A stretch of DNA of 64,000 nt from NCBI RefSeq assembly GCF_026914265.1, contig NC_069126.1:30455854-30519853 (forward strand), written 5' to 3'. Shown here piece after piece: positions 1 to 64,000 of this stretch. The notes under the pieces are model-generated. The model was not told where the DNA came from, did not search any database, and worked only from the letters and a program-made list of their open reading frames with translations. The first letter of the stretch is position 1, and each line of letters begins with the position of its first letter. A program made the translations under genes and the position numbers. This stretch comes from Mya arenaria. Lineage: Eukaryota > Mollusca > Bivalvia > Myida > Myidae.

Positions 1-3000
1 TTTGTATGTTGGTGCAAGAATAGGTCCCTATTACTTACATTTACACACTAATGTGTAACGTGGTGCACACAATGGCTCATCGCCATCAGCGAAACAATGG
101 TCACTGCAAGGCGTGCAATAAATGTCCATGTACTCATGAATCCCACATAGTATTAGGGCATCTGTAGAAAAGTTAATACATGCTAAAGATAACACAGCAG
201 TGGTTCAAGATGTCAATGTTTCTAAACGTTTGACATAAAAGGTTATTTACAACGATAGTGTCATCGTCGGATACCTCTGATACACACTACGCTATCCTTT
301 GTTGTGTTTTGTGGGCAATTTGGTTAGGAAAATCTCCTTATCATGAATAATTAATGAGGCAGTTTCATTGGTTCCGCAAAGAACCAGATGCGTTACGGTT
401 GAAAGATATTCTGACGATTGCCGAAGTTGAACCGGGTCTGCCTTCTTAGTACAAGAATATTTGGCAGAAGTCAAGACCACACGGCCACGGAGGCTACTGA
501 CACTGCATTATGTTATTGAACAATATTTGAGTTTAACATGCGAATTCGCTTGAAGAAGAGTTGTTTCTCCTGCCTCATGCATATTCATTAAAACGAGATT
601 GTGTCAGTGAATTGTCCCACGGTATGTTTAAAGTGTAACGGAAGAAAGCAACTTGGTTGTCGACGATGAAATAGTGTATAACATAGCAAAATGTATAGAA
701 TGTTTTTTGAAAGACTTAACGTTTCAAAACGGTTTCAAAACATAACTGTTCTGTCAGTAACATATCTTTAATAGAAAGAAAACAGGCAAATACACTACAC
801 TTGAATCAATGTATTGATTAAAGGCCTTAAGCAAGGCCGAACTAACACACCACCAGTGAGACAACGGTACAAGACACACATGACCATGTAAATGTTGAGG
901 TTACCGCATTGACACGGTCATTAAAAAGAGCAATAACTCAATTGTGATTTAACTTGTATTCGAGAGCTCAATCTCACGTTTGCCCCTTAATCATGGCACA
1001 AATAAGGCCGCCCAAACAATGTTAAGCAACATAATATGATTATACAATCATTGTTTGAGGCTCAATTAATTGATAATTATGGACATTAATGAATGTGTAA
1101 GATGACGTAGAAACTTCTTAAAGACGTATACGATTTTCTCACACTCAAAGAGTTACCTTTGTTCAGAAGCTCATGTAATCTGTTCGATTCATTTAGGAAG
1201 AAAACATGTTCCTCGTCTGTAGCAAAAGCTGGCCATGGTTCTCTGTCTGTAGTAGCTTTTCCAGATAATACTACATACGTTTTAATACCCTCGTCTCGAA
1301 ATGCACCGAGAATCTGAACCTTTGGGTCAGTCAAGATGATGCTAATCTTAGCTCGTTTTGGCCTTTTGCGGGGATAATTATGAAAGCATTGGATGGTATT
1401 GGAGTTCAACCTTGTGGCGGATATTTCATTTCCAGATGCGACGTTGTTGATACTTAGCACTTCTTCTTTCCATTTGATGTCTGTAGAATCCTGTGTAATG
1501 GTAATGTTTCTATAGTTGCCGTTTTGTTTCACAACAAAAATTGTTGCAATACTGCCTTCGGGCATATTTTCAATAAAATTTCCCAAAAAATCTCTTGCTT
1601 CAATAAACGTTTTTTGTTCGACAGAAGTCTGGAGCCAATTGATGCAAAAGATTGGTGGTTGCTTGACAGATCCTGAAAGGTGGTAAATATTTTAAAGCAT
1701 TAAAAACAATTCATAAATAAAAAATGAGCCGTTATTTTGACAAAGAATTATTGACAAAAACCTGCAACGTCGATGTAAAGGTTCTGTCTGTGACAAACGC
1801 CGCAGAGAATTTTGCATTGTTTTGTTAATACTGATTTATTTGTGCCGGATTGGATATTGAAGACGGCCGTCAGGTAATACGAATCACTCTCAAATCCGTT
1901 TCCTATGTAGATAGCAGTACTGGCGTACTTTTTTCTTTGGGGTGTGCGTGTGGGGGAGGGGGGGGAGGGCACGAATATGTACCCCTCGTGGGAACTTTTA
2001 CCCTTTCAGCAAGTTGAAAGGCGGTCGTTTTACACGTTAATTTATTGCAAATCCTAAGAATGTCGTTTCAACCCGAACCACCTTATAGACATCTACATCT
2101 AGGTCTGTGTTATTGAAAGATGCTATTAGCAGAAAATACTACTTAAACCAAAACCAGCTGCTGTATATAATTATAGGTAATATTTGTGCTTTTATTGCTT
2201 TAAAAAGTAGAAAAAAAAATAACACACCACTGAGGGCCATATGAAATTATAAGGACCGGCCAGTCAGCCAACGAAAGTGTATTTGGACCGAGGTCGGTCT
2301 TTATGATGCCATATGGCCCGAAGTGGTGTGTCATATTTCTTATATTATACCGAACACTGTTTTACCATTTAATAATTTTAAAGCGTCTTTGATGTGTTTT
2401 ATTAAAAAAATATAATGTTTACTTGCGATATTATATAGTGTCCTATTATATGACTTCATCGGTCCATATTATATTTTTGCGAGGTCCGGACCGGCAGAAA
2501 ACATGATATGGACCGCTGACGTCATAAAAACATGGATTTTTATTAAAATACATTGCTATACGGACCGATCAACTTTATATACACAAAGAAAGGACACATT
2601 TATGTAAGGTATGATATATAATTATAAGTCATATTTGTGCTTTTGTTGCATTAAAATGTACATTAAATATAAAGTCCGTATAGTTTGTATAGTTTGCTCT
2701 TTATGTCAACTGAAATCTGACGTTAAATTTCGTTTTAGCAATCATTGAAGTCCAAAAACAGAACATTTTCGGTTAAAAAATATACTTTCTTTTTCTACAA
2801 ATAAACCCATTCTAATAATACCAAACAAATATGGGGTCACCAGGCATTCAAAATTCACATCTGTGTGCGTCTCATTCCTTAAATTAAATTATTTAATGAA
2901 TAATATGAGACAAAAATAAACATTTAAAGCTGCACTCTCACAGATTGAACGTTTTGACAACTTTTTTTATTTTTTGTCTTGGAACGAGCCAATTTTTGCG

Positions 3001-3950
3001 AAAATCCATGGAAGGCAGAACTTTATATAAGACTGTTGACAAAAAATTAGAACGCAGATTTTTATACACAAGTTCAAAAATTGATGTTTTATGCCTATTT
3101 CTTAAACCGTTAGTAACGGTTTAAGCCATAAAACATTCATTTTCGAACGGAAATATAAAATTCTGCTATCTGATCTTTTGTCAGCAGTATTATATCATTG
3201 GTTTGCAGATATTTACGCAAAAATTTGCTCTTTTCAAGACAAAAATAAAAAAAGTTGTAAAAATGGTAAATCTGTGAGAGTGCAGCTTTAAGGCGTAAGT
3301 GAAATGGATATTCTACCTTTATTATAGATCTATACACCACACAACGTCTTGTTTTCCGACATTAAAACAGAAAGAAAAAAAGTTTAAAGAAGTTTAATAT
3401 AGGCAAAGTTAGACTACAGTTATACTTAAAACTTAAAAATCTTATGTGCCAACATTATGTCAGAAATAGTGAGGTTATCTTTTCGTAAGATATGTTCTTG
3501 TATCTATATATAGATTTATATAATTACACAAACGGGTTGTCCAAAGGAATCCCAATCTTTTTTTTAAAAAAGTGCAATGCAATACAGGAATCCCAATTAA
3601 ATGGAGGTTTAGGACATATTTGGGTATGGGAATTGTATGTTTGTGCAGATGTAAGCAACACTAATGGCCAAGCCTAGGAGCGGGATCATTTATGACAACG
3701 GCGGGTAGGTTAAAGGGCTGATGTGGACGATTTCACTAAATACTGCTTCTAACGTGACGTGTTTTGTACTGTTTATTATTGATGAGTAATGCAGGGGCTA
3801 CGGTCATACTGAAACAGTTACAAGAACACAATACCTTTAACATGTGGTCGGGCAGTTAATAACCAAGAATTGGTCAGTACACTTACCATAAATCACATTA
3901 ATCCGCCATGAAATAAGAAGCACAGCGAAATATAAATTAGATCGCTTCAT
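1..3950 (-). CDS. Gene A: signal peptide + vWA-like + TNFR-like receptor, 5' part only
   Basis: Three exons fit in frame: 3950-3887 (signal peptide MKRSNLYFAVLLISW..., donor GTAAGT), 1672-1157 (vWA-like) and 161-39 (six-cysteine domain, donor GTAAGT). All junctions are phase 1. The second exon has alternating hydrophobic strands and helices of the vWA fold, for example PPIFCINW at its start, ISIILTDP in the middle and HVFFLN near the end. The DxSxS metal motif is absent, although LTD of the second metal loop survives. The third exon shows C-x9-C-x2-C-x3-C-x8-C-x7-C, the spacing of a TNF-receptor repeat. The membrane and cytoplasmic exons must lie to the left of the window. By analogy with genes B and C it is probably a type I membrane protein; a secreted form cannot be excluded. 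Function and ligand are unknown. Confidence 0.72.
1770..1936 (-). other. Exon-like open stretch in intron 1 of gene A
   Basis: The minus strand reads an open stretch with segments such as STAIYIGNGFESDSYYLTAV and CKILCGVCHRQNLYIDV, followed by a possible donor (GCAG|GTTTTT). The amino-acid composition looks coding. However, the available acceptors give phase 0 or 2 at its left end and phase 1 at its right end, so it cannot be spliced between exons 1 and 2 of gene A without breaking frame. It could be a relic exon, part of an alternative transcript with a further exon, or chance. Confidence 0.25.
2219..2336. repeat. Short foldback repeat
   Basis: ACACACCACTGAGGGCCATA at the left is answered by TATGGCCCGAAGTGGTGTGT at the right, giving an imperfect hairpin of about 118 bp with the GGACCG/CGGTC motif further in. 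It lies in intron 1 of gene A. It resembles a small MITE or foldback element, and no target duplication was resolved. Confidence 0.5.
2924..3291. mobile_element. Foldback MITE family 1, copy 1 (TTAA ends)
   Basis: The element starts TTAAAGCTGCACTCTCACAG and ends CTGTGAGAGTGCAGCTTTAA. The inside is also largely palindromic: TTTTGTCTTGGAACGAGC near the left end is mirrored by GCTCTTTTCAAGACAAAA near the right end. Related copies are at 33096, 37233 and 58993. TTAA at both borders suggests a TTAA-targeting transposase such as Kolobok or piggyBac, which is inferred from the ends only. It sits in intron 1 of gene A. Confidence 0.75.
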
Positions 3951-7228: not shown

Positions 7229-7531
7229 AAGCGCGCACAAATGTTGCTCACATAGCGTCATCGTTGTAATTGTGCGCCCTCACTTTTGATTTGAACGTAA
7301 GGGCGAGCTAAAATTCCAAAGCAGTGAACTAGATCAAATGTCCTTTGTTTTTCACTGAAAAATCGTTATAAACCAGTAAATAATAGTCAATTATCTTGGA
7401 GCATACTATAAACATTCATTATGCAGAAGGGTTTACTTAAAACACAGACGCAACCTCCACATTATTTATATCAACCAGACACATAAATACATCACACACT
7501 GTGGTTCATTACATACGTTTACAAACAATTT

Positions 7532-7564
<33 letters not shown>
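7532..7564. repeat. (CAGA)n microsatellite
   Basis: About eight uninterrupted CAGA units. Confidence 0.9.
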
Positions 7565-13627: not shown

Positions 13628-16600
13628 TTAATCTGTAGCTTGAGTCCCTGCTGGTACCCTTCGGTAATCAGGATGAACATTCTCGACTCGTTCGGGAGCA
13701 TCCACTGCTGCAACTATTAAAGAAAATGTATCGTTTTCTTATTAAAATAAATATAAACTAATGAAAAACTGGAATCGAAACTAAGTGATCTTACTAGCTG
13801 ATTTCGATTTTTGCAAAATTTGGATTTTGCAAAACAAGAACGAGCTGAACATAAGTATAAAGACAAAACATGGCTGGTAGAACATGTTCTTTATATTAAA
13901 CATATCTGGACTGTCGAATACTGTGAAAAGGATATAACTTTAGACGTTTAATATATTGCGAACCAATATTAAATATTACCTTTCTGCATGTAATTTATAA
14001 ATTTTCCACCGGTGTCAATCATTAAATCACAATCGGAAGTGACGTTGATACAAGTAGACGTCGATGGTGGTTGAGTAGAACCAGATGTTGGTTGAGTAGA
14101 ACCAGATGTTGGTTGAGTAGAACCAGATGTTGGTTGAGTAGAACCAGATGTTGGTTGTGTTGAACCTGATGTTGGTGAATTAGAACCTGAAGTTGGTCGA
14201 GTAGCTGCATTATGTGATATACGTCCTTGTGTCCCGTTTCTTAAATAAACAAAGTATCGTAATATTAAAAGAACAAATGACTAACTATTAGTAAATAGTT
14301 GAAAAGACGCAGAAAAATAATCAGGTCATGTCAAATTTATTCATGATTAACGTCTTCTGGTCCCAGTTTTGCGAACGTTCTTAAGCTAAACAAGTTTAAG
14401 TAGCTTATTTTATTAAATCAGATTCCTTACTTAGTCTTGAATTGACTAAATATAGTATATCATGATTGTTATAAAGACATTTCTCTTTAAAGTCCAAAAT
14501 CTTTTACGAATGTAAATATAACAAAGAACAAGCGAAAACTAAAAGTGAGCATAGCTTTAGCATGGTATACGGGACTTAAGATGTGTCGAGAAATTAAGGC
14601 CTGGCTGGTAGGTCAGTTTGCTAAGGTATCTAAGTAGCCATATGATATAAACTTTTAAAAATATTTAAAAACGACTTAAGTTAATTGATAAGAGCCCAGA
14701 TTTGCATATCTTTTTATTTTCTTTGTTTGTTGCTCCACAAAATATCAATATGGTATAACCTTATTAGAAAAGCAATCTTCATTGCAAAAGTCCATTTTAT
14801 CATATCGCTAGACTAAGCAATATGCATAAACTTATCGTTGAGGTTTAGTGAGCCTTTTGAAAGTGAGAAACGCCTGATACACAAAAGGATGGTAGCCTCT
14901 CCGACATGATATTTTTTTAGAATATACAATTTAAGTTTTAAAAGCCAAATGATCGGGCTCAACACAAACATTTAAACAAAAGTAACAGTATTAAGTTGCA
15001 CTTAACGTTGGTTTTAATTTTACAATAGTATTGTATATCCCCATACCCAACGTTGTTGTTCGATAAAGATTCCTCTTTGTCTGTTTGATTTAAAGATTCC
15101 ATTTGTTCGCAGGCCTCTATTGATGAAAAGGATCTATTTTGGTTTCTGTTTTGTAACTGAAGAAAAAAAATCAGTTAAATTTTCAAAGAATAGTCCCTTC
15201 TACGATACCATATTTTTCGTATAACGCTTTTAAAGTAAATGTATATGAAAAAATAAATCAAGAAAAATATTCAACTACGACCTTTATCTGTGGACTTCTT
15301 ATATAAATCGAAAAAACAAGTGGATTAACGAGGAAAACTGAACAGATGAACTGAAAATGAAATAAATGGAAGGAACATTGCTCTCCATTTGCACATGCTC
15401 GTGTGTTCCTTCGGCGTACCATCGTGACGGCGATTACGATAACTGCAATAATGATAAGCGTAATGCCGACACTTATGCCAGCTGTTGCTGACGGTCGTAA
15501 CCCGGAATCAGAGCCCCTCGAACTGTCAATTTCATGATGTTTGTTTGGCGTAGTTCCAGTTGATATTGGACTTGGCAATGTAGTCGTATTTACCATTATT
15601 TGCCAAAGGTCCGTAAGGTCTGAAATACGTAAATATTCGTGAAGAGTTGTATTCACCGTAAACAAGTTAAAATGCTGTTGTTAAATGAGTATGATAATAT
15701 TATTTTTATATAACATAAATTTGTGAATAACAGGTTGTTTAAATGCATACGTGTGTTTTTTATAAACATCAGAATAATATACGTCCAGTGAGTAGTATCG
15801 GGGGTTATTCTATGCTTTCCGGTGGTATAAGAGAGATAAACCAGTAAACATGGTGTTTCAAATAGTGAAAGGATCTCTTTGATTCTGTTTTACTGTTGTA
15901 AAGGTTCAGCCTGCTTTCAGTTCCAAATCAAACGTCAGCGCAATGGGCTTGGACATAAACTCAACGATATTGTATAATATTGTATAATTAATTTTCATTT
16001 TATATGTATCCTTGTAAAAAATACAATACATAACTTTTTTGTTTAAAGTTGAGATCATAAACACAAAATGTAAACATTTTGCTCGTTCTGTGCCACTTTT
16101 TTGTACTCTCTACAAGCTAACACTGAAACAAACCATTATTCCCCATTACTTACATTCGCACTCTTCTGCAAAGGCTTTCCGGATGCAGTAGATAGATGGC
16201 CTATCATTACACACATCCGTACAAACCCTACATCCCTGTGGTATGCTGGTTTGAAAATATTCATATATTCTGCATATTTTATTTGAATCTGCAATGAAAT
16301 GACAATCTTTTTAAATACAGGTGATAATAATTTATTTTATTATATACCCATCAAAAATCCACACGCAATACATATCGCAAAATACGGTAGTCCGTATTCC
16401 ACTCCAGTGCAATACGGCTGTATTACACTCATGTGCCGTCACGTCATAACAAGTATCGTTGCGCGATGTTAAAATGACGTCATAAAACAAAATAGTGCGT
16501 CGTTAAAATGACATTTAATATGAAAACATCTGGCTTTTAAGTGATCAAACCAGTAATGTAGATAATAAAAGAGTTATTAGTACTGCGTTTTGATCCGGAA

Positions 16601-19600
16601 TGTCGTATTCGACTCTCGTGGAGTTTTGCAGATTGTGATTTCACTCGGCTTGCGCCTCGTGAAATCCGAATCTGCAGAAATCCACTCGAATCGACTACAT
16701 CCTCCCTGAGCAAAACGCAGTAATAATAACCCTATTATAACTCGATTGTGAAGACAGCTCGACACAATCAAGTCCGTTACCATGGTAGTACTTTTTCAGA
16801 GGCCATGAGGCTGCACGTATCCAGGATCATATTAGTCATTTCACAATCTCAATATCAACGCATTTTACCACATAACAAGATAAACTGATTTAAAATCGTA
16901 TATAGTTTTACATTTGTACAACTCGAGGGATGAAATGAAAAGGTTCAGTGCACTACCTTATAGATTAATAAGGTTGATAATAAATGGATCATAATTCCAA
17001 AGAAAAATAACTCTAGAGCCAAAATTGTAGTTTAGAAAAAAAAAATATTTTTGAGTTTTTACTCAATTGTTTCTTTTTTTGCTTTCGCGTTACTTTATAA
17101 AAACATATTGAAAAAATGTGTTTATCAACATAAGACATGAGATTTATGTACATTTTGCAAGGATTAAACTTTTCTAACATTATGAATTATGCTATGTTGT
17201 TCTATGGGACTATGTGTTGAGATAGAGACTGAAATATTAGGGCCTGGTACGACTCCAGTTGTCATACTCTCATTTACGGCTTCGGCCAAAAAGTGTATTG
17301 TATGGTCAAGACATATCATATATATAATAACAAGCAAATATGTCACAGGTATGAACATTTAATAATTAGTATATTGACTATGATAATTGCAGGCACTATT
17401 TTAATTGTGAAGTACGTTAACTATACATCGCGAGCAAAATAAATAACCCTAACATATATTGGAAACTTTTAAATGAAATTGTATAACATCATATGTATTC
17501 AAAATGTCTATAATACGATGGTAACACCATTCAAATGCGTTATGAACAAGTTTAATACTCATGATGAGTATGCTATTGCAATTAATTTAGATTATTGACC
17601 AGTAATATCACTGGAAACATAGATAATTTGAATTTAACACGATTACATCATACGAACCTTTGACAAGAATGCCATGTAGCAATGTTAAATTTGATGCCGA
17701 TATGATATGGTTGCCATCTGTAACAAAGGGAAGCCAATCCACTTTATCTTCTGCTTCCCCAAACGTTATTACATACCCCTTAATCTCCATGTTTCGAAAA
17801 CCATACGTTATATCCAAATTAGTTTGTCCAATTATCATAAATATTTCGGCCATGTCTGGTGTATGGCGATGAGCATTAGCTTTTGGAAAACATTCTAAGA
17901 GATTTGCATTCAGTTGCTCCGCTGAAATCTCACGACCAATCCCAACAGGCTTTATAGAAAGCAGGATTTCTCTGATATTATCCATATTATTAGATGTCTT
18001 TTCTATAACCAATTTCTCTTGGTTAAAAGAGTTAACCCTGAAAATAGCTATAATGCTTCCATCTGATAACCATTCGGCAAAACGAATGAGCCAATCACGC
18101 TGATGGGCAAATGGACTCTCTGCTAAAGCCGGCCACTGGATGCAGTAATGTGCTCGCTTTTGTATCATTCCTTCTACAGGTGCGCCTTCTGCAACTATAA
18201 AAGTAAGTTTTATACCCTTATAACATGCGTAAGAAAGTTAATATATAGTTTATATCAAGCAAAAATCACTGGCGAGATATTTGTCCTATAACTTGGTCCT
18301 TTTTTAATACAGGGATTTTGCTTAAAACTAACGTGTTTATTTTGTATTAAAATTGAACAAAAGCTATTCGAAATGTGTTATTAAACGTAGAAATGATTTC
18401 AACATTTTGTCCAACATAACTGTTACAATTATTTCCAAATATTTTAAGAAATACTACAAAAGAATAAAAAGGAACAACACAACGTATTCGTTGTAAATGT
18501 TGTTTAATCCAAGCAGAAACAAGCAGGTTAAGCAATGCTTGTGTCATGTGTCATTTAATGAAATAACGTTTATTGTAATAATCGAAATAAACATTTAATA
18601 CATTACTGAGTCTTATATTAACATTTGTTCCATCTTAAATTAAGCTTGTAAGGCATTCATCGATGCAATCTGCACAAGTCAATTGTAAACACGCCCCCCC
18701 CCCCCCCCCCTAGGTCCGGGGGTATACCGGAGATGGCCGGGGAAATGGGCCGTGTTTTTACCTTCCAGGCGGTGCCGAGTGAATGCGGTGGTTTTGTCGT
18801 CGCGCCAAAAATAGCGGGAATGGGCCTTACTTAGGGTTCCTGGGGTGCGGGGACATTTCGCGGTGATTTTACCGGCAGTTCGTCCCCGCAGGACGGGGAT
18901 TTTACCCGGGCTTCGCTGGCCCGGAAGTCAATGTCCCCGCTATTCCCCGGACCTGTGGGGGCGTGGTTACAATTGACTGGTGCATTAGATTAGGATAGCC
19001 ACAGCGTAGATAGTTTATTATTTTACGGTAGTTTGTACATATAAAAATATCAACTCATAATTATCTAACAGTTCCTATTCACCTTCATTGTTTGCGGTTG
19101 GTAAAGCGTAGCAAGAGGTACACTCTGCCATTATTCGCTATAAGAATCGTTTGCAATTATAGTATTTATATTGCAGGTCATTTTAAAAAAAAATATTGAA
19201 CCGTTTATGTCTTATTACTTTATATGATTTGCATCGCCGTTGACAGAATATCATTATTGTGTATAAGGCCATTATTCGTTGATAAGCATAATTTACAACA
19301 TATAGATTATACATTTTGCAGTCTTCCTGTCTTACCTGAAGCAAAAGTGCCAATCCAGCATCACTGGTATTCAATATTTGTCTTATATGTATTTAAGAAT
19401 GGTATAGCCAATCTCGTGTAATAAATAGCGGACCTAGTGAATGAACCCATTGAGGTCTGATCCTAAAATTGACTTAAGTTGAATATTGAATGCTACTCCA
19501 GTGGTCTAAGGGCAAATAAGTTTTTTTAGATCTTACATATAAGTACTGATACCGATACATATCGTCGCATTAGTGCTATAGTTTTCTTACTCCTTGTTTT

Positions 19601-28600: not shown

Positions 28601-31191
28601 TATTACAGCCTTATTTATGAAACAAACAATAAAGTCAAAAGTCAATGCTCTACCATAACAAGACCAAATAAACGCCTACCAGCCGCGGAATATCTATATG
28701 ATGGTATTTGGATGATCGCTTCCAAAACGGACTTAACATTTGTAATCATATGCCAAAACTCCATTCAAACTCATAGCAAAAAGACAGTAGAAGCTCCTTT
28801 AAGTTTGCTATCGTTGCAAATGAACTGCAAAGCGTATAATGAACATTTTACACTGGGGTCATGGTTTACAAATAGTTCAAGACTGCTATTAAATAATTAT
28901 GAACATTATCAAGTACTTCCCAATTTCACATCACTTCAAATCTGGGAACCTCTCCATAAGATTCTTACTAACGTCTCAAAAATTGAAATGCCTGATGAAT
29001 TGAAACAGATACACGAACTTCCCTTAAGAGCTTTAATGAATAAATTAATTTACTTACCCAATTCTGTCCTTGACGTATCCTCTGGGTGGCCACTATGGAA
29101 AATAATTACAATCATAGCAGCTGGTGTTCTGCTTGTCAGTGTGACCGTTCTCATTCTTTGTAAATATCCTTCTGCCTTTCTCAAATGTATTCCTAACCGA
29201 TCGCGTCCCAAACCACACCCACAATACAGTCAGGTGGTCTACAAGGCCAGTGAGGAATCTACTCTCGCCCAATCAGAGGCGGGGCCTGAAAAACCGGGTA
29301 TCTGCAACCAATCAACGTCGTCTGCGAACCCGATGTCCGAAGCCATCCAACGACTTTATCCTTGCTTGGATCGAATGGATTTAAACCCTGAGGGCCACAA
29401 TTAAAATTGTTGACAGCCACTGGGACTTCTGATATGTCACTAAAAAGATCGTCAGCCGACGATACCACAATAGTGATGGACATCATTAATGGACTTGTAC
29501 ATAAGAATCGTTTATCTATTTATGGACTTATTCACTGAAGTACATGAGAAAATTCACCGGGTAGCGGCCCAACGCCAACTCCATGTCTGCGTTTGCTGCT
29601 CTGATTCCACAGTCTCTCGTAGATCGGTGAGAGCCCTCGCCAATAACCGGGCCGTGTTCCAAAGCGTTTGGACACGTGCCACAGCGCATCTAGAGCTGCC
29701 ACCTCAAGGACCAGCCGCGTCACCCCCCCCCCCTCCCGGTGTTGCCACTTACATGGACGTGCTCCGGATGCTCGAGTGACCGCCCACGGTCAACAACCAC
29801 GAACAATAACCTAGACGTCAATAGTGTCGACTAGAGACATCTTCAGTGACTTTTCAGACGTGTTTAAATATTATTATTTCAGTTTAGTGTATTGTGTTTG
29901 TTTCTGTTGATTATTTTTTTTCTTATTTGGTTTCGGGTATAATTTATGTGCATGTATTCTTGTTCTCTTCATATTTCATATAAAAACCAAAACAAAACCG
30001 TACCTTCTATTCACCATCTCCTTTTAAATTTTTGTTACCAATCATCTACTTTATCATTAATCGATTATAGTTGACAGAGTTTTTCTCAAGTTTAAATACC
30101 GCAGAGTATTTCTCTCAGATTAAAAGTCTACATTAACACCATTCCTGTTGACACCTCATCATTAGCAAGTGTCATCATCCTCGCGAGCAATTCACTTTGA
30201 CACCAATTAACCCTGCGGGTTTAAGTAATGATCGTTTCTCCGATCTTTACCGAAATAATTATCACCTCTTTATGACACTTCCTAAAAATAAGATTAGGGC
30301 GGAAACGCGTTGCTTGCGCCGCTTGTTAGATTTAAATTGGCGCTTGGTAAATTGATAAAAATTATTGGAAATAATTATTGGGATAAAAGGTATAACAAAA
30401 GGTATAACGCAAGGATTATTGGTGGCAAAACGAAACATTAATTTTTTTTCTCTGGTTTCAGATATCGAAACGAAATTAAATTAAAATATATTAAGCAAGA
30501 TGAAATAATTCCCATGATGAAATATTTCTTTTAAGAAAAATCGGACGAATGTCACGTAACCGTCGTTACGTATCAACTTTAAAGTGTTACGTAACATAAA
30601 AGTTACGTATGAAACACTTTAAAGTAATTACCAAAAATCAATAATAGAATTCAAAATTTATTTGTATCAAAAAGTAAATACTCCATATTTGTATCAAAAA
30701 GCAAATACTCCATCATGGGATCAAATGTAGATACACTTAGATGCTGACAGTTCGTGATAGCCGCTGGCTATTAGACCAATTAGCGTGACAGTTCATGACT
30801 ATAGAATACATCCCTTCGTCTGTAATAAGATATTAGATATGCATACCTGTCACAAACTGGACGAGATCAGCAGTATATATGAACGCATGTTACTCATGTT
30901 AGTGAGATTAGATTTTGGGCGTGGACTAGACATATGGCCCGTATGATACTTTATTATATACTGATTATTATACTTAGAAAGAACGTGGAACAATAAAGAC
31001 TTAGAACACTTGAACAGTTGTTGGTTGGTTACTGAACGAACTATCACGAAAGTTAAGTGAACAGTAGCATTACGTGACAAAAATTAATATTAAGCAAATT
31101 AAACAAATAGTGAAAACTTACTTTTCGAAAATCCTTCATCACTAAGAATTACACTAGTTAGCACCAGTCCAACATGCAGTACAGAGCTCAT
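13628..31191 (-). CDS. Gene B: vWA-like + TNFR-like single-pass receptor, complete model of 461 aa
   Basis: Seven exons fit in frame (1386 nt): 31191-31122 signal peptide (MSSVLHVGLVLTSVILSDEG), 18188-17658 vWA-like, 16288-16154 six-cysteine, 15619-15420 stalk and membrane span, 15156-15047, 14239-13980 and 13707-13628 cytoplasmic with stop. Phases are 1,1,1,0,2,1. The vWA-like domain (about residues 24-200) lacks DxSxS. The cysteine domain (201-245) is C-x13-C-x2-C-x3-C-x7-C-x8-C, TNF-receptor-like. The stalk has an NTT glycosylation site; the span is about 290-312 (GISVGITLIIIAVIVIAV). The tail carries six PTSGSTQ-type heptads. Intron 1 is 12.9 kb and holds the LTR element in opposite orientation. 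The weakest junction is the donor after the span (ATG|GTACGC). A cell-surface receptor role is inferred; the ligand is unknown. Confidence 0.78.
14067..14205 (-). repeat. 21-bp coding minisatellite (PTSGSTQ heptads)
   Basis: Inside exon 6 of gene B a 21-bp unit (plus strand GGTTGAGTAGAACCAGATGTT) repeats about six times. The middle units are identical and the outer ones diverged. In the frame set by the flanking splice phases it encodes PTSGSTQ five times after one PTSGSNS. A second frame is also open through it, but does not fit the splice phases. Confidence 0.85.
16578..16725. mobile_element. Palindromic MITE in intron 2 of gene B
   Basis: ACTGCGTTTTG at the left and CAAAACGCAGT at the right bound an imperfect palindrome of about 148 bp, with a centre GATTTCAC...GTGAAATC around TCGGCTTGCGCC. 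It is non-coding. It probably belongs to a foldback or MITE family; the target duplication is unclear because the surroundings are TTATTA-like. Confidence 0.6.
18671..18984. mobile_element. GC-rich inverted-repeat element, copy 1
   Basis: Starts TGCACAAGTCAATTGTAAAC and ends GTTACAATTGACTGGTGCA, about 20-bp imperfect inverted ends around a GC-rich core (GGTCCGGGGGTATACCGG, TTCGTCCCCGCAGG, TTTTACCCGGGCTTCG), in sharp contrast to its AT-rich flanks. A run of about 19 C lies near the left end (from about 18693). The second copy is at 41375. It sits in intron 1 of gene B. Confidence 0.7.
19669..20836. mobile_element. Pearl/Helentron-like element with tandem core
   Basis: Starts AACAAGAGGGCCAAGATGAC, then CCTATATCGCTCACCTG; ends AAAGCTCACCCTCAGCC... 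AAGGTAAGCTAAAAA, after a GACAGACGACAGACGACGGA-type tract. The core has about five units of roughly 145-155 bp with GGGCTCTGTGACCTAGTTTT, TGACCCCAGATGACCCATAT, TTTCTGACAAATTTC and TATTTGGGCTGAAAATGTTA. Terminal CTAA next to a small hairpin would suit a Helitron-type 3' end, an inference. It lies in intron 1 of gene B. Confidence 0.6.
22314..22843 (+). repeat. 5' LTR
   Basis: 530 bp, TGTCACG...GTGACA. The left part carries several TTACGTA palindromes (for example GTTACGTAAC at 22350) and two ACTTTAAAGT palindromes. An AATAAA-type signal (GAACAATAAAGAC) lies in the right third. Confidence 0.95.
22974..23905 (+). pseudogene. gag region of the LTR element (fossil)
   Basis: The region encodes a capsid-type segment followed by two CCHC zinc knuckles (CIYCRRPGHNIKDC and CWNCGKMGHFQREC), typical of gag in Ty3/Gypsy elements. 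It is in a different frame from pol. About one break is seen, so it is treated as a fossil. Confidence 0.8.
23948..28039 (+). CDS. pol polyprotein of the LTR element
   Basis: A long frame of 1363 codons with the Ty3/Gypsy order: protease (VDTGAEVSLIS, about residue 28), reverse transcriptase (FSSLDLKSGYFQ and YLDDILIFS, about residue 450), RNase H (ILYTDASDKNIGACL), integrase with a His-Cys zinc finger (HDNNGHPGSQ... CVTCQ) and a D, D-35-E core (VSVDVQGP, SDNGSE, NGQNERSH), a GPY/F-like module, then a Ser/Asp-rich tail. RNase H before integrase excludes Copia. Treated as part of a fossil copy. Confidence 0.93.
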   Translation: MSTFTIAICGNPNSCLIKIGNISFRSLVDTGAEVSLISRKALRLLQNKPKLSNKRAHLQSVNGNSLQVDGSVQLKFKIGRVHKVHEFYVVPNINRNIILGRDFLSKNGVRLYFDLECMRIDDSYVPLEEDLHIASIVRLQKCTVLKPQTRYLLNGKVKSNPNIDTKKCYEIKNINNSFLDSEPGLVIVNSVVKFQSKRTFPIAIINNTHKTIKLRKGSAIGKIEKLEAQEIASVQNTSVKGNPMTDDEILTDLRVPKDHAETILPIIMQNRKRFAKNDSDLTQTDTVTMTIETGDHPPIKLRPYRTPLNNRKIIDNAIDEMLEANVIRKSHSPWSFPIVIVDKKDGTKRFCVDFRQLNKITKPTSYPLPLIDDILAILGKSSWFSSLDLKSGYFQMKLAEQDKEKTAFTTGFRGLYEFNTSPFGLCGTPGRFQELLNQVLEGCESFAIAYLDDILIFSKTKEEHLVHLQKVFKQLEKHKLKLKLKKCQFMQEETQYLGFVIDKLGIRPDPKKVEAIRQIPTPKCVRDVRSVLGAAGFYRRFCPKYSEMVEPLINLTRKTVKFFWSPDCERSFQLLKDNLTKIPYLSYPDINKPYILYTDASDKNIGACLTQKCEENEIGDYANEKPIYLLSHKLSDTQTRWSTVEKEAFAIHYALQKLDHYLHNAEFVIRTDHKPLKYLLESPMQNKKIQLWALGIAGYNCKIEYIPGKTNIIADFLSRPPSSDTNQIDPPTDYEPDISDNTFQISENYVPENTKQVNAINSHYLNKKQVVDKEYEEQDSFVEPVKQFESMSMANEQDLDANILQLKMKLRHGQPSKTEQNKYIEIDRILYYLSNADEEPNLRLVIPSHLTPLVITQYHDNNGHPGSQRLFATIKQKYFWPGLFKELHAYVEKCVTCQSRNLTKIKAPMQDRLNMAPYPFSVVSVDVQGPLPMTSSRNCFIICFLDMYSGFVEAFPAPDKSSDTLIHLLVEEICCRYSTPLRLISDNGSEVTSGAFQAVLKELNIDHVKTSTYHPQANGQNERSHATINNILSKLVEGNVRQWDVHLNMTLAAMRFSTSESSKHSPYFLLFNRDPVLPIDNLLKPRMKYHGEQYYQIMLNAQHKAFVEVRRQLKKSKRKRAEYANRNAKDIRFNLNDPVYYKNFQRHNKLDAKWKPYYRIIEQKSPLTYLIKNQLDNSIVKVHAEQIRHAKIDEWPIPKTTNKRPIRRANYVVPPSDLSSSDSNDSEPIDSEPHQVNLPPITKRVKQELGTDSDSENEIPLAELQKILRNKSKVTEMPTEVTNDTLSSSDSESLMSGINLNNPPAYTNHIDSDNLITPESSDDEAMNIEAVSAPPLNVKKHKKDSRHKKNAIKTMLKCLSVML
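28276..29404 (+). pseudogene. Envelope-like third region of the LTR element (fossil)
   Basis: After pol comes a region whose beginning shows a hydrophobic signal-peptide-like stretch (MNYLNYLVLWFAIGMS). Its end shows several N-glycosylation sites (NSS, NFT, NVS), a membrane span (WKIITIIAAGVLLVSVTVLI) and a cytoplasmic tail with YSQV. This order fits the envelope-like genes of errantivirus-type Metaviridae. No clear furin site or fusion peptide was seen, so the assignment is tentative. About one break. Confidence 0.5.
29489..29779 (+). other. Small open frame after the envelope-like region
   Basis: A frame of 96 codons in a GC-richer stretch of the LTR element, with Cys-rich VCVCCSDS, many Arg, and a Pro run near the end. 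No domain was recognised. It may be an accessory frame or chance openness due to base composition. Confidence 0.2.
30550..31079 (+). repeat. 3' LTR
   Basis: 530 bp, reads as identical to the 5' LTR. No strong purine tract precedes it; AAGAAAAATCGGACGAA is the nearest purine-rich stretch. Confidence 0.95.
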
Positions 31192-33095: not shown

Positions 33096-33536
33096 TTAAA
33101 GCTGCACTCTCACAGAATGAACGTTTTGACAACCTTTTTACGCGATAAAAGCGATAAATAACTACGCAATCCATATAGTGGATATACTTTCATGTTTATC
33201 TTTGATCGTGCACTCTCACAGTTTGAACGTTTTGACAATTTTTTTTTATATTTTGTCTTGGAACGAGCCATTTTTGCGAAAATCCATGGAAACCAGTAAT
33301 ATAAGACTGCTGACAAAAAATTAGATCGCAGATTCTAATATATAAGTTCAAAGATTGATGTTTTTTAAGCCATAAAACATTAATTTTTGAACGGTAATAT
33401 GAAAATCTACGATCTGATTTTTTGTGAGCAATCTTATATAATTGGTTTGCAAGTATTAACGCAAAAATTTGCTCTTTCCAAGACCAAAAATAAAAAAAGT
33501 TGTAAAAATGGTATATCTTTGAGAGTGTAGCTTTAA
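33096..33536. mobile_element. Foldback MITE family 1, copy 2, with extra segment
   Basis: Starts TTAAAGCTGCACTCTCACAG and ends GAGAGTGTAGCTTTAA. An extra block (CGCGATAAAAGCGATAAATA, ACTACGCAATCCATATAGTG, GATATACTTTCATGTTTATC) stands between the outer end and an inner repeat of it (GTGCACTCTCACAGTTTGAA). The same block is found inverted after copy 3 (37582-37650), so copies 2 and 3 derive from one longer form. Confidence 0.7.
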
Positions 33537-33821
33537 AGGTAGTAGTTACTGTTACCAAAACCAAAGTATTGTACTTATAGTCAAGTGTAAAACGGAGATA
33601 GTGTATAACCTACTTTTCTAGGGTGGTATGTGCAGTAACTGTTTTGTACCATGTTGCCAAGAAAGCTGTTCAATGGTGCATGTATGCGTATATTGAACTA
33701 TCATTGTCAATTATCTGCACGCTAGCTATTTATTGTAGGGTGTGGATACACTCAAACTTCAAAGTACCCTATAGCTTATACACCTCTTGTGTTAACAAAT
33801 CACACTATTCATTAAAGTGAC

Positions 33822-34184: not shown

Positions 34185-34559
34185 TATTTAATTCCCATGT
34201 TTGTTTACATTCACTATTATTTTCATCACTTATAGTATATAATGAACTGAGAAATACCTACCTTGGTAATATCATATCACGTGACAGTTTTGTAAATATC
34301 TCCGATCTAGACAAACTTGTTTTACTTATGAAGGACTATGTGAGACAATTATCCAAGTATATTGTTAGTGCTTTCACTCTGAGAAAACCCACACTGTTTG
34401 CTTAAAAGTATTGCTAGTTATTAACATTACATCTTTTACGTTGAAAGTTTGTTCATGCAATGTCCTTAATATGTAAACTCACTTATAAACGTATTTGATG
34501 ATATAAACATTTCCTTTATAGATATGTATAATATTCACTTTAAACCTTACATACATATT

Positions 34560-34738
34560 CGTTATGTTTAATTTATGAAAATTTGTATTTCATATATGTG
34601 ATATCTAGGTGACTTATAGGCCCGATGGGCCGGGTGTAATTGCTTAAACTATTTATATTTGTATTGATTTGTAATGATGTATATATACACATGTCACTAT
34701 AATAAATAATTACTTACTTACTTACTTACTTACTTACT
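34560..34738 (+). mobile_element. Possible retroposon 3' end with (CTTA)n tail
   Basis: GGCCCGATGGGCCGGGTG, followed by AT-rich sequence and AATAAATAATTA, then about seven CTTA units (34711-34738). A simple-repeat tail after a short GC-rich block is typical of LINE or SINE 3' ends; the family was not identified. Confidence 0.35.
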
Positions 34739-35094
34739 ATATATGTTTAATTGATATGCTTTCCTTTTCTTGTGTTTCACAAGTTCTGTATGCTCTATGA
34801 CCAGTGGTTAATGTGTGATATGCAAGTTTGCCTCAACGAAATTAATTTTGTTATCGTTAAGAATGTTATTATTGCTGCTGTTGTTGAACAGTATGATCTC
34901 TCATGACCTGTTTCCGTGTATATATGAAAATTAATGAAGTAACGAAAACAAAGATTATATGCAATATATCCAATGTGGTACAAAATACAATATTTAAAAT
35001 AAGGCGGCAAAACAATTTCAAGAGATTCTTAACATGTTATGGATGAGAGATTCGTAGTATCAAATATTAGTCTTGATATAACTGACCAGTAGCT

Positions 35095-35337
35095 AGTTGT
35101 CATTCAAGCAATCAGTTGACCTCGCCAGTTGTCATTCAAGCAATCAGTTGACCTCGCCAGTTGTCATTCAAGCACATAGTTGACCAAACACAGGATCACG
35201 GATTGTTTTAAATAAATGAAAGCACATGGTTACATTAAATAATTGATATTCAAACTTGCACAAAATGATCTCGACAACAATTGTTTCGGCGACTGATCAG
35301 TTGAGGATAACGATTGCTTCGGCGACTGATCAATTTA
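35095..35337. repeat. Two short minisatellites
   Basis: A 32-bp unit (AGTTGTCATTCAAGCAATCA + GTTGACCTCGCC) repeats nearly three times at 35095-35185. At about 35275-35337 a unit with TGCTTCGGCGACTGATCA is present twice. Both lie downstream of gene C. Confidence 0.75.
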
Positions 35338-35727
35338 GGCTTGGCCCATATTCACTTACATTTTACGCCTGACTTTGAAACCCAGGCTCAGAAAACTATT
35401 TTTTTAAATGTTTCAATAATTATTATGATATAACTTTCAATTTCGACAAAAGACGTGTGCCTGATAAAACCGATTATATTTAAGAGACACAGCATTTTTT
35501 TTCTGCTATTAACAAAATTAAAATTTGCTCAAACTCAGACTCCAGATATTAGTCAATATGTGCCTTTTTATTTCATATGTAGATCAGGCATACTGGTGCC
35601 CAAATATCTGACATAAATATTTACAGTGAACCAAAATATCAGGCATTAATAACTACACTGTGTCCTAACATTTCTTCATCACTTAAAACATACCCTTTGT
35701 AAAGACAGTTTTAAAATACATAACCAA

Positions 35728-38700
35728 CTAACTAGTTGCTTCTACTGAAAGCTTAACTGAACATTCAACGACAGTCTCCACCGACGATTTTTCAGTGTTT
35801 TGTTCATTTACTCCTTGCTGCATGTCTAAACGTTTAACATCAGTCTCATCCGACGGTTCTTCAGTGCTTTGTTCGTTTACTCCCTTTTGCATGTCTAAAC
35901 GTTTAACATCAGTCTCATCCGACGATCCTTCTGTGTTTTGCCCATGGACTCCTGTTTCCGTTTCTTCACCCTTTTTCTGCACACACAGACTGTTGTGAAT
36001 GTCACGGAAAGGCTTGTCAGTCCATACGTCTTTTTCTGAATATAAAACAGTAATTCCAATTATCTATTAAACACATGTCTTGCACAAGGGTGACTTCGTA
36101 CATGACTTCAAGTAATAAAAAGTACCGAGTCTGTTATATTTGTATAATCACTCTGTATTCAATGGATTTTGGACAATGATATCATGTTTAACTTACCTCT
36201 TTTAGGCTTTAAATCATCAATTGAAGAATCTCCGTCTACACTCATGTCGTTTAACCTGTGGCCTTCTAATAAAGGCTCATCTTCAGAAGTTCCATTCTCA
36301 CAGTTAGGGTCTTTATTGTCTGCATTTTCTTGATCCGAGTTTTCGCGCGCCTCCTTATCGGTGTGGGCAACACCCGACCCTGGTCTACGAGGAAAAGAAC
36401 AATCATTCCCACCATCCGAAGATTCAGAAGGAGACGAATATGGTCTGGTGACTGGTGAGGAAGTAATACTTCTTCGGTCAATTGATAATTGGTCTTCCGG
36501 AGGAGCAGAAGGTTGAGGGCGTATTCTAGTGCCTGGTGTTGGCTGGTTGATAGCTGAATTCTTACTTCCTATTGTCCCAATTGAACTCAACAAGGACCTC
36601 GCAACATAAGCCTGTAATAAAACATTAGATAAGTAGATCGTTAAATAAAGATTAGAGATTGAGCGTGGATTATGTGTTCCGCCTCTCAACCAGGAAACGA
36701 CCATCAGTGTTATTAATATGATCATAATCAAGCTTAATTGAATCAGTATAACTGAAATCATTATATTGAAAGTATTTTAGAACCAATACCAATTCTTAAA
36801 ACTATATTTTAAAAAATAATCTTCATTTAAAAGCAAAAAAGGTTGGAAATACTCAATTTTAGCATTATATAGTTTATAATTATATATATGAACTTTATAT
36901 ATATATATATAGTTATTATAAGGTGCGAAGAAACATACCACAGGTGGTATAGTCCTGCTCTGCAATAGTCGGTTATATATTTTTGTCCCCAAAAATGCAA
37001 ATATTGCAACAACACAGGCTCCTATGGATATCCAGACGAGAAACGCAAGGTGTGCATTCCGCGTATAGATTTTAGTAATTGCTTCCACTCCAACAGTGGT
37101 TCCGAGCGTAGATATGTCTCCAGTACTATATGATTCAGTTGTTGGTTTAGATGTATCTTCTTCACTTCCAACGTCTGGTCTCCAATCTATTTAAAAAAAA
37201 TACGGATCAATTCCAGTCAATTTCTCAAAGCTTTAAAGCTGCACTCTCAAAGATTTACCAATTTTACAACTTTTTTATTTTTTGTCTTGGAAAGAGCAAA
37301 TTTTGCGTAAATATCTGCAAACCAATGATATATGATTGCTGACAAAAAAAGATCGGAGATTTTCATATTTCTGTTCGAATATTAATGTTTTATGGCGTAA
37401 CAAACGGTTTAAGAAAAATGCATAAAACATCAATTTTTGACCTTAAATATAAAAATCAGCGATCTATTTTTTGTCAGCAGTCTTATATAACTGGTTTCCA
37501 TGGCTTTTCGCAATAATTGGCTCGTTCAAAGACAAAATATAAAAAAAAATGTCAAAACGTTTAAACTGTGAGAGTGCACAATCAAAGATAAACATGAAAG
37601 TATATCCACTATATGGATTGCGTAGTTATTTATCGCTTTTATCGCGTAAAATATAAATTATAATAAGAAATGGTTAGTGTGTAATATGAATTGAATGACT
37701 TACACATGCAATCTCTTGTGGCATCACTATTGGTTTCGCACAAAATCCTGCCATCTTCTGTGCGTTTACAGTTCAGATCAGAGCAAGACTTGCACATATT
37801 GTCGTTATAATACTGGTCGGTTTTGCATCGCATTTGTGTGTCTATAAAGTAAGAATTGTGTAACTTTCTAAATCGTGGTTATTAAAGTGACAATCTTACT
37901 CAAAATCAATGCATACACATGTATAGCATACAATTTGAGTGATAAGCCATTGAGTAATTAATAAATGATGCATTTATAGAAAAATATTAATTACTGAAAA
38001 CAAGATTGTAGCCGTGTATTTAATAGCTGAAAACGAAAGATATTTAATGATTGTTGAGTGCTTGTAAATTTACTGTGATTTACTATCGTCTCATAAGGTA
38101 GAAATTCCGCGTTTTCTGCACCTTCCTTTCCGATTAAAAAACTATCCTTCACAAGAACCATTGTTTCGACATCAATTCATCTAAAGTTTTGATATATTGA
38201 AACAATTGTACTAATTGTAGTAAATCTTATTTGGAAGTAAGCGTACATCTTTAAACAAATGCAAAGAAACATTTATTTACCTATTGTTAACAACTGGTAC
38301 AACTCTTCCTTATTGTCCATGTACAGAAAGTGGTCCATGTCGGTAGCATGGGACGTCCATATATCATCAATAAGCTTTTCATCCTTAGTCGTTATAACAA
38401 AAGTCTTGACCAAGATTTTATCCAGCTCACCTTGAAGTAAAGCCTCAGACGAAACAAGAAAAATGGCAATACTAGGAAGACCATTATCGTACACTTTTGA
38501 GTACCATTGATTATCTATGGTACGTTTAATAGCCGCAGAGGATACAAACTTGCTTGCATTGATTGTTTCTAAATTCAGCTCCAGTAAAGCATCTGAATAT
38601 GTGTCGATCCCAGCTTGTTTAGTGAAGCTCAGGACGAGCTGAGTAGTTAAAACGTTGAAAAAGAAGATGTCGACGAGGCTTCCATCCGCAATATCATCAA

Positions 38701-40497
38701 TGAAAGAGATAATCCAGTCCCTCTGTGTCGATAAGTATTTTGTAGACATCTTTGTATTGATCCACAGAACAACATAGTTGGCGGGTTCAAGGCCGTTGGC
38801 ACTATTTCTGTTTGAAATGCTTCTTGCTGTCAAAAGAAGTAACCTATTGATTTCATCATTTTAATTAAACAATGTACTTTAATTAAAGAGACTCGCTCAT
38901 ATGTTTCATGTTTTCCCGGTAATGTTTCTGAAAACACTTATTTTTTTCATTATTGTAATCTACAACAATATTTTGGTTTTAGTGGGGTGCGAACCCACGC
39001 CGGTAAAGTCAAGAAAAAAAGATAACAGACGCCTAAACCCGAAATAATCACGAAATAATGTCAATCAACCAATAATGCCATAACGGATCGCTGAAAGCCT
39101 AAGTAACGCTATTGAAAATTGTGTTCTTCAAAGACGATATTTGAGCAAATATCAACATTTGCTGAAGTCAATCAGTCAGCATCTTACTTTTAACACTCCT
39201 AATGATTTGCCGCACTTTATTTCGTAGTAATAAAAAAGTCCATTTTGCAAACCATGAGCGAGTACCTTTAATACATCAATTGAACAACGGTAACATTAGT
39301 TGTTTTTATCAGCTCGTTTGCCCGCTGTTGTTTACATGTATTTGGCCTCGGAATTTCTCTTAAAGGGACTCTGCTCGAAAAAACTCAACTTGTCCGATAA
39401 AGCGATCAAAAGATAAAAGCCAATCTACTCAGGACACTTAAATCAAATTACATACAACAGATCTTGTTATTGTCAAAGAGTATAAATTTAAACTATCTTC
39501 AAATGGTTTCCCATGGAATAATGTTAGACCTTATATATGTTTGGTTTACCATTACAGTCTATTAATATATGCCGGTGTACCATTAATGTTTGACCCCGTT
39601 AAAAATAAACCATTGGACATTTTTCACGTTGAAAGTTGATCCTTCCGACATTTAAACGTTAAATCTTGATTAAAAAAGTTGATGAAAACCTCATTCGGAG
39701 CTCCTCTGCCATTTCTGTCGAAAACAATAACACACTTCACTGGCAATCAATCAATTTAAACATAGATAAATAAATACAACTCTAAAACACCACATGTAAT
39801 TAATGATTTAATTCAAAAGTTTACGAACTACTTTTAAATTAAGAGATGTAACGGCATACATACGAGGTTGTTTTCGATGGAAAAGGGCCAAGTAGTTCCG
39901 AATGTGTTTAATTATGCTCAGAAATGAGATTTATTTTTTTACGCAAGCATACAAGCAAGCTTCCTCACATACAATGCCTAGCCGGAGCTCGAATCTACAA
40001 GTTTCAATACCGATTTTAATCACGGATTTTTAGATGCATGGTAATCTTAAGGATCTATTGGCGATCTATAAGAAAGGGAGCGAGGCCGCCGGCCAAAAAT
40101 ACACCAACAATGCACCATTCCGGACTAGAAATTGTTAGTTTTTTCTTCATGGGCGGGGGAGGGTGGGGGGAACACTCTTACCCAAATAAATATCCGTTAT
40201 GAGGTAGGGGCGCAAGTCAAATCTTGGATCCGTCCCTGGGGTAAGTTTTCAACGTTAAAAATGATTTGTCATCCATTGAAAAATGACCCCAATGGTCAAT
40301 ATTCAATGGGGTCAAAACTTAATGTTACACCGGAACTACTCATATAAATTGGAATCCCAAAATAAATCGCCAATTTCTGATTAAATACTTAAAAAATTGT
40401 AAAATGGTATATAAACTTTGATCCTACCTTCAATTCTAATCACACCCGACGTCAAAATAATCCAAATGCAAATGGCCAAATGCACTTTATTCTCCAT
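35728..40497 (-). CDS. Gene C: vWA-like + TNFR-like single-pass receptor, complete model of 574 aa
   Basis: Six exons fit in frame (1725 nt): 40497-40428 signal peptide (MENKVHLAICIWIILTSGVI), 38826-38281 vWA-like, 37841-37704 six-cysteine, 37186-36939 stalk and membrane span, 36611-36197 and 36035-35728 cytoplasmic with stop. Phases are 1,1,1,0,1. The vWA-like domain (about 24-205) has YVVLWIN, SLVDIFFFN and PSIAIFLVSS strands but no metal motif. The cysteine domain (206-251) is C-x10-C-x2-C-x4-C-x9-C-x9-C. The span is about 297-318 (HLAFLVWISIGACVVAIFAF). The 256-residue tail is Ser/Pro-rich, has an EDEPLL acidic dileucine motif (endocytic sorting), an SDQE stretch loosely like a TRAF2 site, and three related repeats of about 23 residues at the end. 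No death domain or enzyme domain is seen. A receptor role is inferred. Confidence 0.82.
35765..35985 (-). repeat. ~69-bp coding tandem repeat in last exon of gene C
   Basis: A unit encoding about 23 residues (with DETDVKRLDMQ and GVNEQ.TE) occurs twice almost identically and a third time diverged before the stop codon. Confidence 0.85.
37233..37650. mobile_element. Foldback MITE family 1, copy 3, with extra segment
   Basis: Starts TTAAAGCTGCACTCTCAAAG, with a palindromic inside (TTTTGTCTTGG...CAAAGACAAAA). The inner end GTGAGAGTGCAC is followed by the extra block shared in inverse with copy 2 (CACTATATGGATTGCGTAGT, TATTTATCGCTTTTATCGCG). It lies in intron 3 of gene C. Confidence 0.7.
37882..38254. 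mobile_element. TTAA-flanked MITE family 2, copy 2
   Basis: Starts TTAAAGTGACAATCTTACTC and ends AAGTAAGCGTACATCTTTAA. Homologous over its length to the copy at 33822. It fills most of intron 2 of gene C and ends about 26 bp before the vWA exon donor. Confidence 0.7.
38960..39035 (-). mobile_element. tRNA-like SINE fragment
   Basis: On the minus strand CCGGCGTGGGTTCGCACCCC gives a T-arm-like stem and loop (GTGGG TTCGCAC CCCAC) with a polymerase III B-box, followed by ACTAAAACCAAAATATTG. No complete tRNA can be folded, so a SINE remnant is more likely than a gene. Confidence 0.35.

Positions 40498-55970: not shown

Positions 55971-64000
<8,030 letters not shown>

What the first reader, a model, noticed from the sequence alone, without database searches (positions are those of the whole stretch)
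1..40497. Tandem family of vWA-like + single TNFR-like repeat receptors
Three minus-strand genes share one architecture: signal-peptide exon, vWA-like exon, exon with one six-cysteine TNF-receptor-like repeat, then (in B and C) stalk, membrane span and a low-complexity tail. The exons fit in frame across all junctions (B 461 aa, C 574 aa). The vWA-like and cysteine exons are both phase 1-1, the symmetric type that moves easily by exon shuffling. The paralogs diverge strongly in sequence but keep structure and phase, as expected of fast-evolving surface or immune receptors. I know of no named family with this domain order.
Basis: partly seen in the sequence, partly recalled or inferred. Interest (0 to 1): 0.88.

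Follow-up and report, generated by a model that had tools for sequence, protein, structure and literature searches.

The report
Fast-changing clam surface receptor family
The soft-shell clam carries a family of cell-surface proteins that join an adhesion-type module to a single module of the kind found in tumour-necrosis-factor receptors; the outer parts differ greatly between copies while some tails are identical, as one expects of recognition receptors, but their job has not been tested.

Summary
The window is from Mya arenaria. Genes A, B and C each carry a vWA-like exon followed by a six-cysteine exon. The C model (574 aa) equals an NCBI "uncharacterized" protein letter for letter; A agrees where it overlaps; B's first exon and 461 aa were not reproduced.

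Genome searches (three protein queries answered) found 14 such vWA exons on C5, C8 and C12; 14 of 14 are followed by a six-cysteine exon. Profiles support both domains: vWA (mussel PTMP1, E 2.9e-12) and TNF-receptor repeat, closest to BCMA (E 0.0015). The metal-binding DxSxS motif is absent in 14 of 14. The four protein homologues found (capped search) are all Mya.

Two pairs are mosaics: in A/A2 the vWA exon differs at 17% of bases, the tail exon at none; F1/F2 diverge in the vWA half only. A flanking gene in the same duplicated segment differs at 4 of 847 residues. I read them as type I recognition receptors with a diversifying vWA head. Expression, function and polymorphism are untested; the inverted copy of the cluster may be a retained haplotype.

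The parts
3887..3950 (-). Gene A exon 1: start codon and signal peptide MKRSNLYFAVLLISWRINVIY, phase 1 donor GTAAGT
   Evidence: the A2 copy has a similar exon MNYLFVSVFLILSWINVVAC, which is in NCBI protein P0003. Signal peptide judged by eye, no predictor run
1157..1672 (-). Gene A exon 2: vWA domain, phase 1-1
   Evidence: Pfam VWA 26.9 bits, cut-off 23.8; splice sites
39..161 (-). Gene A exon 3: six-cysteine TNFR-type repeat, phase 1-1; the gene runs on to the left of the window (stalk, membrane span, tail)
   Evidence: NCBI P0001 contains the exon 2-3 junction and the rest of the gene (exons placed)
17658..18188 (-). Gene B vWA exon, phase 1-1; first exon of B not found
   Evidence: no signal exon
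16154..16288 (-). Gene B six-cysteine exon, phase 1-1
15420..15619 (-). Gene B stalk and membrane-span exon (donor GTACGC, my reading of the sequence)
   Evidence: conserved in B2 (88%) and weakly in B3 (41%)
13628..13713 (-). Gene B probable last exon (VAAVDAPERVENVHPDYRRVPAGTQATD, then stop)
   Evidence: conserved in B2 (82%) and B3 (68%); exons between it and the membrane span not settled
40428..40497 (-). Gene C exon 1: signal peptide
   Evidence: identical in NCBI P0002
38281..38826 (-). Gene C exon 2: vWA domain, phase 1-1
   Evidence: homologous to the A and B exons
37704..37841 (-). Gene C exon 3: six-cysteine TNFR-type repeat, phase 1-1
36939..37186 (-). Gene C exon 4: stalk and membrane span
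   Evidence: P0002
36197..36611 (-). Gene C exon 5: cytoplasmic tail, holds the sequence EDEPLL
   Evidence: P0002
35728..36035 (-). Gene C exon 6: repeat-rich acidic end of the tail
   Evidence: tandem repeat 35772-35940

Best explanation
These are type I, single-pass cell-surface receptors of the soft-shell clam: signal peptide, a MIDAS-less vWA head, one BCMA-like TNFR repeat close to the membrane, a Thr/Ser-rich stalk, a membrane span and a tail without a known signalling domain. The most likely mechanism is that the vWA head binds a varied ligand (microbial, or on other cells) by a protein-protein face rather than by a metal ion, the cysteine repeat acts as spacer or as a dimer or ligand contact, and the tail passes the signal on or directs uptake through short linear motifs (proline-rich stretches in A, EDEPLL in C, DYxxV near the end of A and B). 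Duplication and conversion between copies keep some tails alike while the heads diverge. Shown: architecture, copy number, divergence pattern. Inferred: surface location, ligand binding, signalling, recognition role.
For: Architecture. 14 of 14 vWA exons found are followed by a six-cysteine exon. Fold by sequence profile: PTMP1 vWA E 2.9e-12 and TNFRSF17 E 0.0049 (13 of 14 copies in the profile); cysteine exon alone, TNFRSF17 in the first 10 of 20 rows, best E 0.0015, TACI in 2 rows at 0.29 and 0.35 (11 of 14 copies). Foldseek on the second model: 12 of 13 matches at E <= 0.001 are chains that hold a vWA domain (8 are CMG2/ANTXR2 or an integrin I domain by name; Gal/GalNAc lectin, alpha-2/delta and inter-alpha-inhibitor heavy chains by my knowledge), 1 is a C11 protease. 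Divergence: seven subfamilies at 19-33% identity to each other over 83 cross-pairs, the six with more than one member well supported. Mosaic: A/A2 vWA exon 88/516 differences, tail exon 0/303, last exon 0/72; F1/F2 vWA part a 32/327, part b 11/171, cysteine exon 0/129, downstream 1/1102. A/A2 vWA exon differs more than the next 250 intron bases (88/516 against 18/246, Fisher p 2e-4). The GNL2-like gene in the same pair of segments: 4 of 847 residues, dS 0.017, against dS 0.25 for A/A2 vWA and 0.16 for C/C2 vWA (NG86).
Against: No pairwise dN/dS above 1 where it could be estimated (0.21-0.91 over parts and two methods), so no direct proof of positive selection. C/C2 vWA does not differ more than its flanking introns (p 0.83); D1/D2 exons are more conserved than introns; B/B2 hardly differ (4/531). 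Elevated dS as well as dN in A/A2 could come from conversion with an unseen copy rather than selection. Structure models are weak (mean pLDDT 57 and 44). Only 4 of the 14 genes (A, A2, C, C2) came back as annotated proteins (capped), so gene status of the other 10 rests on open frames and splice sites. No expression, ligand or polymorphism data. Published tests found no sign of allorecognition between mussel haemocytes (PMC12956514, passages), which speaks against the self/non-self version in another bivalve.
Confidence: 0.5

Rival explanations
1. Matrix or adhesion proteins: the vWA head anchors cells to shell, byssus or extracellular matrix, and divergence is drift in a relaxed family.
For: Best solved-structure match of the vWA part is the mussel byssus protein PTMP1. 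vWA proteins are common in molluscan shell and mucus work (search listing and starts of abstracts; passage in PMC6836662).
Against: Signal peptide plus membrane span plus long tail; the MIDAS motif used by many vWA adhesion domains (recalled) is absent in 14 of 14; very unequal divergence along one gene.
Confidence: 0.2
2. True TNF-receptor-superfamily members that bind TNF-type ligands through the single repeat, with vWA as an accessory head.
For: Cysteine spacing C-x9-13-C-x2-C-x3-4-C-x6-11-C-x6-9-C in 14 of 14 and profile match to BCMA and, weakly, TACI; that these bind ligand with one or two repeats is recalled.
Against: No member of 11 tested matched a Pfam TNFR model; no death domain by Pfam in the four NCBI proteins; loop lengths vary between copies. 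TRAF-binding motifs not tested.
Confidence: 0.12
3. Gamete-recognition proteins: sperm or egg surface proteins under sexual conflict, which also diverge fast.
For: Fast divergence of an ectodomain with conserved architecture is also typical of gamete proteins (recalled).
Against: Nothing here bears on tissue of expression; 14 copies with some identical tails are less typical (recalled).
Confidence: 0.1
4. Part of the copy number is an assembly effect: the inverted cluster at C5:31.35-31.44 Mb (A2, B2, B3, C2), and perhaps E2/F2, are the second haplotype left in the assembly, so A/A2 and C/C2 are alleles. This cuts across the functional readings.
For: Blocks from window 693 to 64000 match that region in inverted order, those right of gene C (43.4-64 kb) at 85-99.9%, mostly 94-98%; the GNL2-like copies differ at dS 0.017; the reference was built from one clam with FALCON-Unzip and purge_haplotigs because bivalves are highly heterozygous (PMC10663159, passages).
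Against: A2 and C2 differ from A and C far more than the flanks do, B3 has no counterpart in the window, while B/B2 are 98% alike; D1/D2 sit 7.4 kb apart and are unlikely to be alleles.
Confidence: 0.45

Closest known systems
BCMA (TNFRSF17) and TACI (TNFRSF13B)
   Same: Single TNFR-type cysteine repeat; best PDB profile match of the cysteine exon. BCMA's first five cysteines are spaced 12, 2, 3, 8 (alignment), inside the family's ranges and equal to D2. Type I topology of BCMA recalled
   Different: No vWA head in BCMA or TACI (recalled); the tails here gave no match to a known domain above cut-off
Anthrax toxin receptors ANTXR1/ANTXR2 (CMG2)
   Same: Receptor with a vWA head (recalled); CMG2/ANTXR2 vWA leads the Foldseek list of the second model
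   Different: Here a TNFR-type repeat sits where ANTXR has its Ig-like domain (recalled), and the MIDAS DxSxS is missing
PTMP1, proximal thread matrix protein 1 of mussels
   Same: Molluscan vWA domain, best PDB profile match E 2.9e-12
   Different: PTMP1 matches with two vWA stretches and its match does not reach the cysteine repeat beyond the first cysteine; a byssus matrix protein (recalled)
Integrin alpha I domains (alpha-M)
   Same: vWA fold; weak profile match E 0.09
   Different: Metal-ion adhesion motif absent here; no integrin context
Hypervariable recognition receptors (Hydractinia Alr, Botryllus BHF and fester)
   Same: Works-like only: strongly varying recognition proteins (recalled, and passage in PMC12956514)
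   Different: Those use other domains (recalled) and have shown polymorphism and function; nothing of that is shown here

Membership tests
vWA domain superfamily | Sequence-profile match | tested here: met
   A above Pfam cut-off (26.9 against 23.8 bits); 2 of 13 members matched Pfam VWA at E <= 1 singly, A2 at 14.2 bits, below cut-off; family profile matched PTMP1 at E 2.9e-12
vWA domain superfamily | Predicted alpha/beta Rossmann-like vWA fold | tested here: inconclusive
MIDAS-type (metal-binding) vWA adhesion domains | DxSxS motif in the first loop (motif recalled) | tested here: not met
   0 of 14 in the first 60 residues
TNF receptor superfamily | Six-cysteine repeat with CxxC core and aromatic residue after the first cysteine | tested here: met
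   14 of 14 spacing, aromatic residue read from the same list; profile match to TNFRSF17 and weakly TNFRSF13B
TNF receptor superfamily | Match to a curated TNFR model | tested here: not met
   0 of 11 cysteine exons matched a TNFR Pfam model at E <= 1
TNF receptor superfamily | Type I membrane protein | tested here: met
   Signal exon and membrane-span exon in A, A2, C, C2; read by eye from sequence, no topology program run
TNF receptor superfamily | Cytoplasmic death domain or TRAF-binding motif | tested here: inconclusive
   No death domain by Pfam in four proteins; TRAF motifs not tested, and not all TNFRs have a death domain (recalled)
TNF receptor superfamily | Binds a TNF-family ligand | not testable with these tools
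   Needs binding assay
Anthrax toxin receptor family | Ig-like ANTXR extracellular domain after the vWA head | tested here: not met
   A six-cysteine exon stands there in 14 of 14; no ANTXR model among Pfam matches of four proteins
Allorecognition or polymorphic immune receptors | High allelic polymorphism in a population | not testable with these tools
   One genome only
Allorecognition or polymorphic immune receptors | Effect on self/non-self or infection outcome | not testable with these tools
   Needs experiments

The most novel reading that the evidence does not exclude
A/A2, C/C2 and E1/E2-F1/F2 are highly divergent haplotypes (or haplotype-like copies) of a germline recognition locus under long-term balancing selection on the vWA head: a histocompatibility-like receptor family in the very clam that hosts a contagious cancer.
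Probability: 0.1. Interest if true: 0.92.

Novelty: new variant of a known kind. Interest (0 to 1): 0.58.

Why it matters
It gives a concrete, unnamed receptor family, with gene models and 14 addresses, in a species with a transmissible cancer (PMC10663159, passages) and, as far as I recall, no known histocompatibility system. Because the heads diverge while some tails are shared, the ligand-binding part and its selection can be tested at once with resequencing data. It also adds an unusual domain order, vWA followed by one BCMA-like repeat, to animal receptors.

Tried and rejected

Rejected: that the cysteine exon is EGF-like (no EGF row among 20) or a chance pattern (14 of 14 co-occurrence); that the vWA exons are decayed (no stop inside in any of the 14).

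Rows dropped before counts: alignment A3 holds 13 of 14 (B2 left out, 98% like B); A5 holds 11 of 14 (B2, C2 and one of the identical F1/F2 repeats left out); A4 holds 10 of 14 (B2, C2, D2, F1 left out). A6 was made and replaced by A7 because one row misaligned. The intron alignments contain stretches that do not align truly (divergence 0.26-0.7); from those I drew only that D1/D2 exons are better kept. In A/A2 the stalk exon was tested against the 250 bases before it (22/250, p 8e-6); the 250 bases after it differ more (38/250) and were not tested. The wider A/A2 exon-intron test (153/811 against 120/959, p 3e-4) includes intron 2, which has a large gap.
Full report
What and where. The window is C5:30455854-30519853 of a 1.216 Gb genome in 18 contigs. 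It is Mya arenaria: all four proteins found by the protein search are named Mya arenaria and lie on a contig of 80,778,335 bases, the length of C5, and the published genome is 1.22 Gb in 17 chromosomes (PMC10663159, passages).

Gene models. C has six exons and 574 aa, all internal splice sites GT-AG, and is identical to NCBI LOC128235338. A has a signal exon, a vWA exon and a cysteine exon in the window; NCBI's LOC128235340 isoform X2 starts inside the vWA domain, contains the vWA-cysteine junction and goes on beyond the left edge with a Thr-rich stalk, membrane span and proline-rich tail, so A is a receptor like C, not a truncated gene. The exons of that part were placed. B has vWA, cysteine, stalk/membrane-span and a conserved last exon. 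Its first exon was not found, also not in the near-identical B2 copy. The NCBI proteins A2 (LOC128234677) and C2 (MAR_020470) contain my A2 and C2 vWA-cysteine models. Whether reads support each NCBI junction was not visible to me. The other ten genes did not come back from the protein search (capped), so they may lack annotation or fall outside the words used.

The family in the genome. Queries with C, A and D2 gave 6, 14 and 4 matches, 14 different places in all: C5 window A, B, C; C5:31.379-31.438 Mb C2, B3, B2, A2 in inverted order; C8:50.053 and 50.061 Mb D1, D2; C8:55.787 E1, 55.830 F1, 57.463 E2, 57.522 F2; C12:60.547 H. Other queries did not complete, so 14 is a lower bound. All 14 were read, and all 14 have the cysteine exon after an intron of 316-1369 bases on the same strand. 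F1 and F2 have an extra intron in the vWA domain. F1, F2 and H also show a membrane-span frame downstream, by eye. Subfamilies share 19-33% identity; every subfamily except H has at least two members and each such group has strong support, while the order among subfamilies is unresolved.

Divergence. Blocks across the window match C5:31.35-31.44 Mb in inverted order. A GNL2-like gene (window 44188-46782; name recalled from its sequence, no call) differs there at 13 of 2541 bases, 4 of 847 residues, dN/dS 0.11, dS 0.017. In the same two segments A/A2 vWA differs at 54 of 172 residues with dS 0.25, C/C2 vWA at 29 of 181 with dS 0.16, and B/B2 vWA at 2 of 177 with dS 0.018. So the receptor genes have mixed histories inside one segment. 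Along A/A2: vWA 17.1%, cysteine exon 17.0% of aligned bases, stalk/membrane exon 24.4%, tail exon 0 of 303, last exon 0 of 72, last intron 4 of 1414. Along F1/F2: vWA-a 9.8%, the intron inside the vWA domain 8.6%, vWA-b 6.4%, cysteine exon 0 of 129, downstream 1 of 1102. Both point to conversion or recombination that homogenises the 3' half and leaves heads different. In A/A2 the vWA exon differs more than the intron after it, and the stalk exon more than the intron before it (p 2e-4 and 8e-6, sites taken as independent); C/C2 shows no such excess (p 0.83), and D1/D2 shows the opposite. No pairwise dN/dS exceeds 1. I read this as fast evolution with conversion; diversifying selection is suggested in one pair, not shown.

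Mechanism. Surface receptor with a variable head is the most economical reading of signal peptide, membrane span, domain order, copy number and mosaic divergence. The tails have no Pfam domain above cut-off (four proteins). Short motifs I noticed by eye (EDEPLL in C, DYxxV near the ends of A and B, DVW in A and C, proline-rich runs in A) are leads only. Rivals are listed with odds; the haplotype question cuts across them, since alleles this different would be more remarkable than paralogues.

Known or new. Both domains are well known; the order vWA, single TNFR repeat, membrane span was not found in print by searches (listings, starts of abstracts and passages), and the NCBI entries are called uncharacterized or hypothetical. 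Only open-licence papers were searchable. Hence: new variant of a known kind.

Noticed in passing
window 22314-31079: LTR retroelement between genes B and C with gag-like (23067-23906), pol-like (23894-28039) and an extra membrane-protein-like frame (28547-29404) (names by eye); its two 530-base LTRs are 100% identical and the inverted copy of the region lacks it, so it looks like a recent insertion. Described only.
   Followed up: partly
window 44188-46782: GNL2-like nucleolar GTPase (name recalled) in one uninterrupted frame of 847 aa, with a second copy on C5 that differs at 4 residues.
   Followed up: partly
C5 about 31.428 and 31.434 Mb (script coordinates 98105 and 104057): The signal exon of A2 occurs twice, about 6 kb apart, with the same peptide; a second A-type gene or a partial duplication may lie there.
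   Followed up: no
C5 about 31.3999-31.4004 Mb (script coordinates 69978-70420): Stray copies of gene C tail exons upstream of B2, perhaps a remnant of a tandem duplication.
   Followed up: no
window 37232-37576, 58992-59333, 2921-3291, 33209-33790: A dispersed repeat of about 350 bases that matches the same places of the inverted copy; perhaps a short interspersed element.
   Followed up: no
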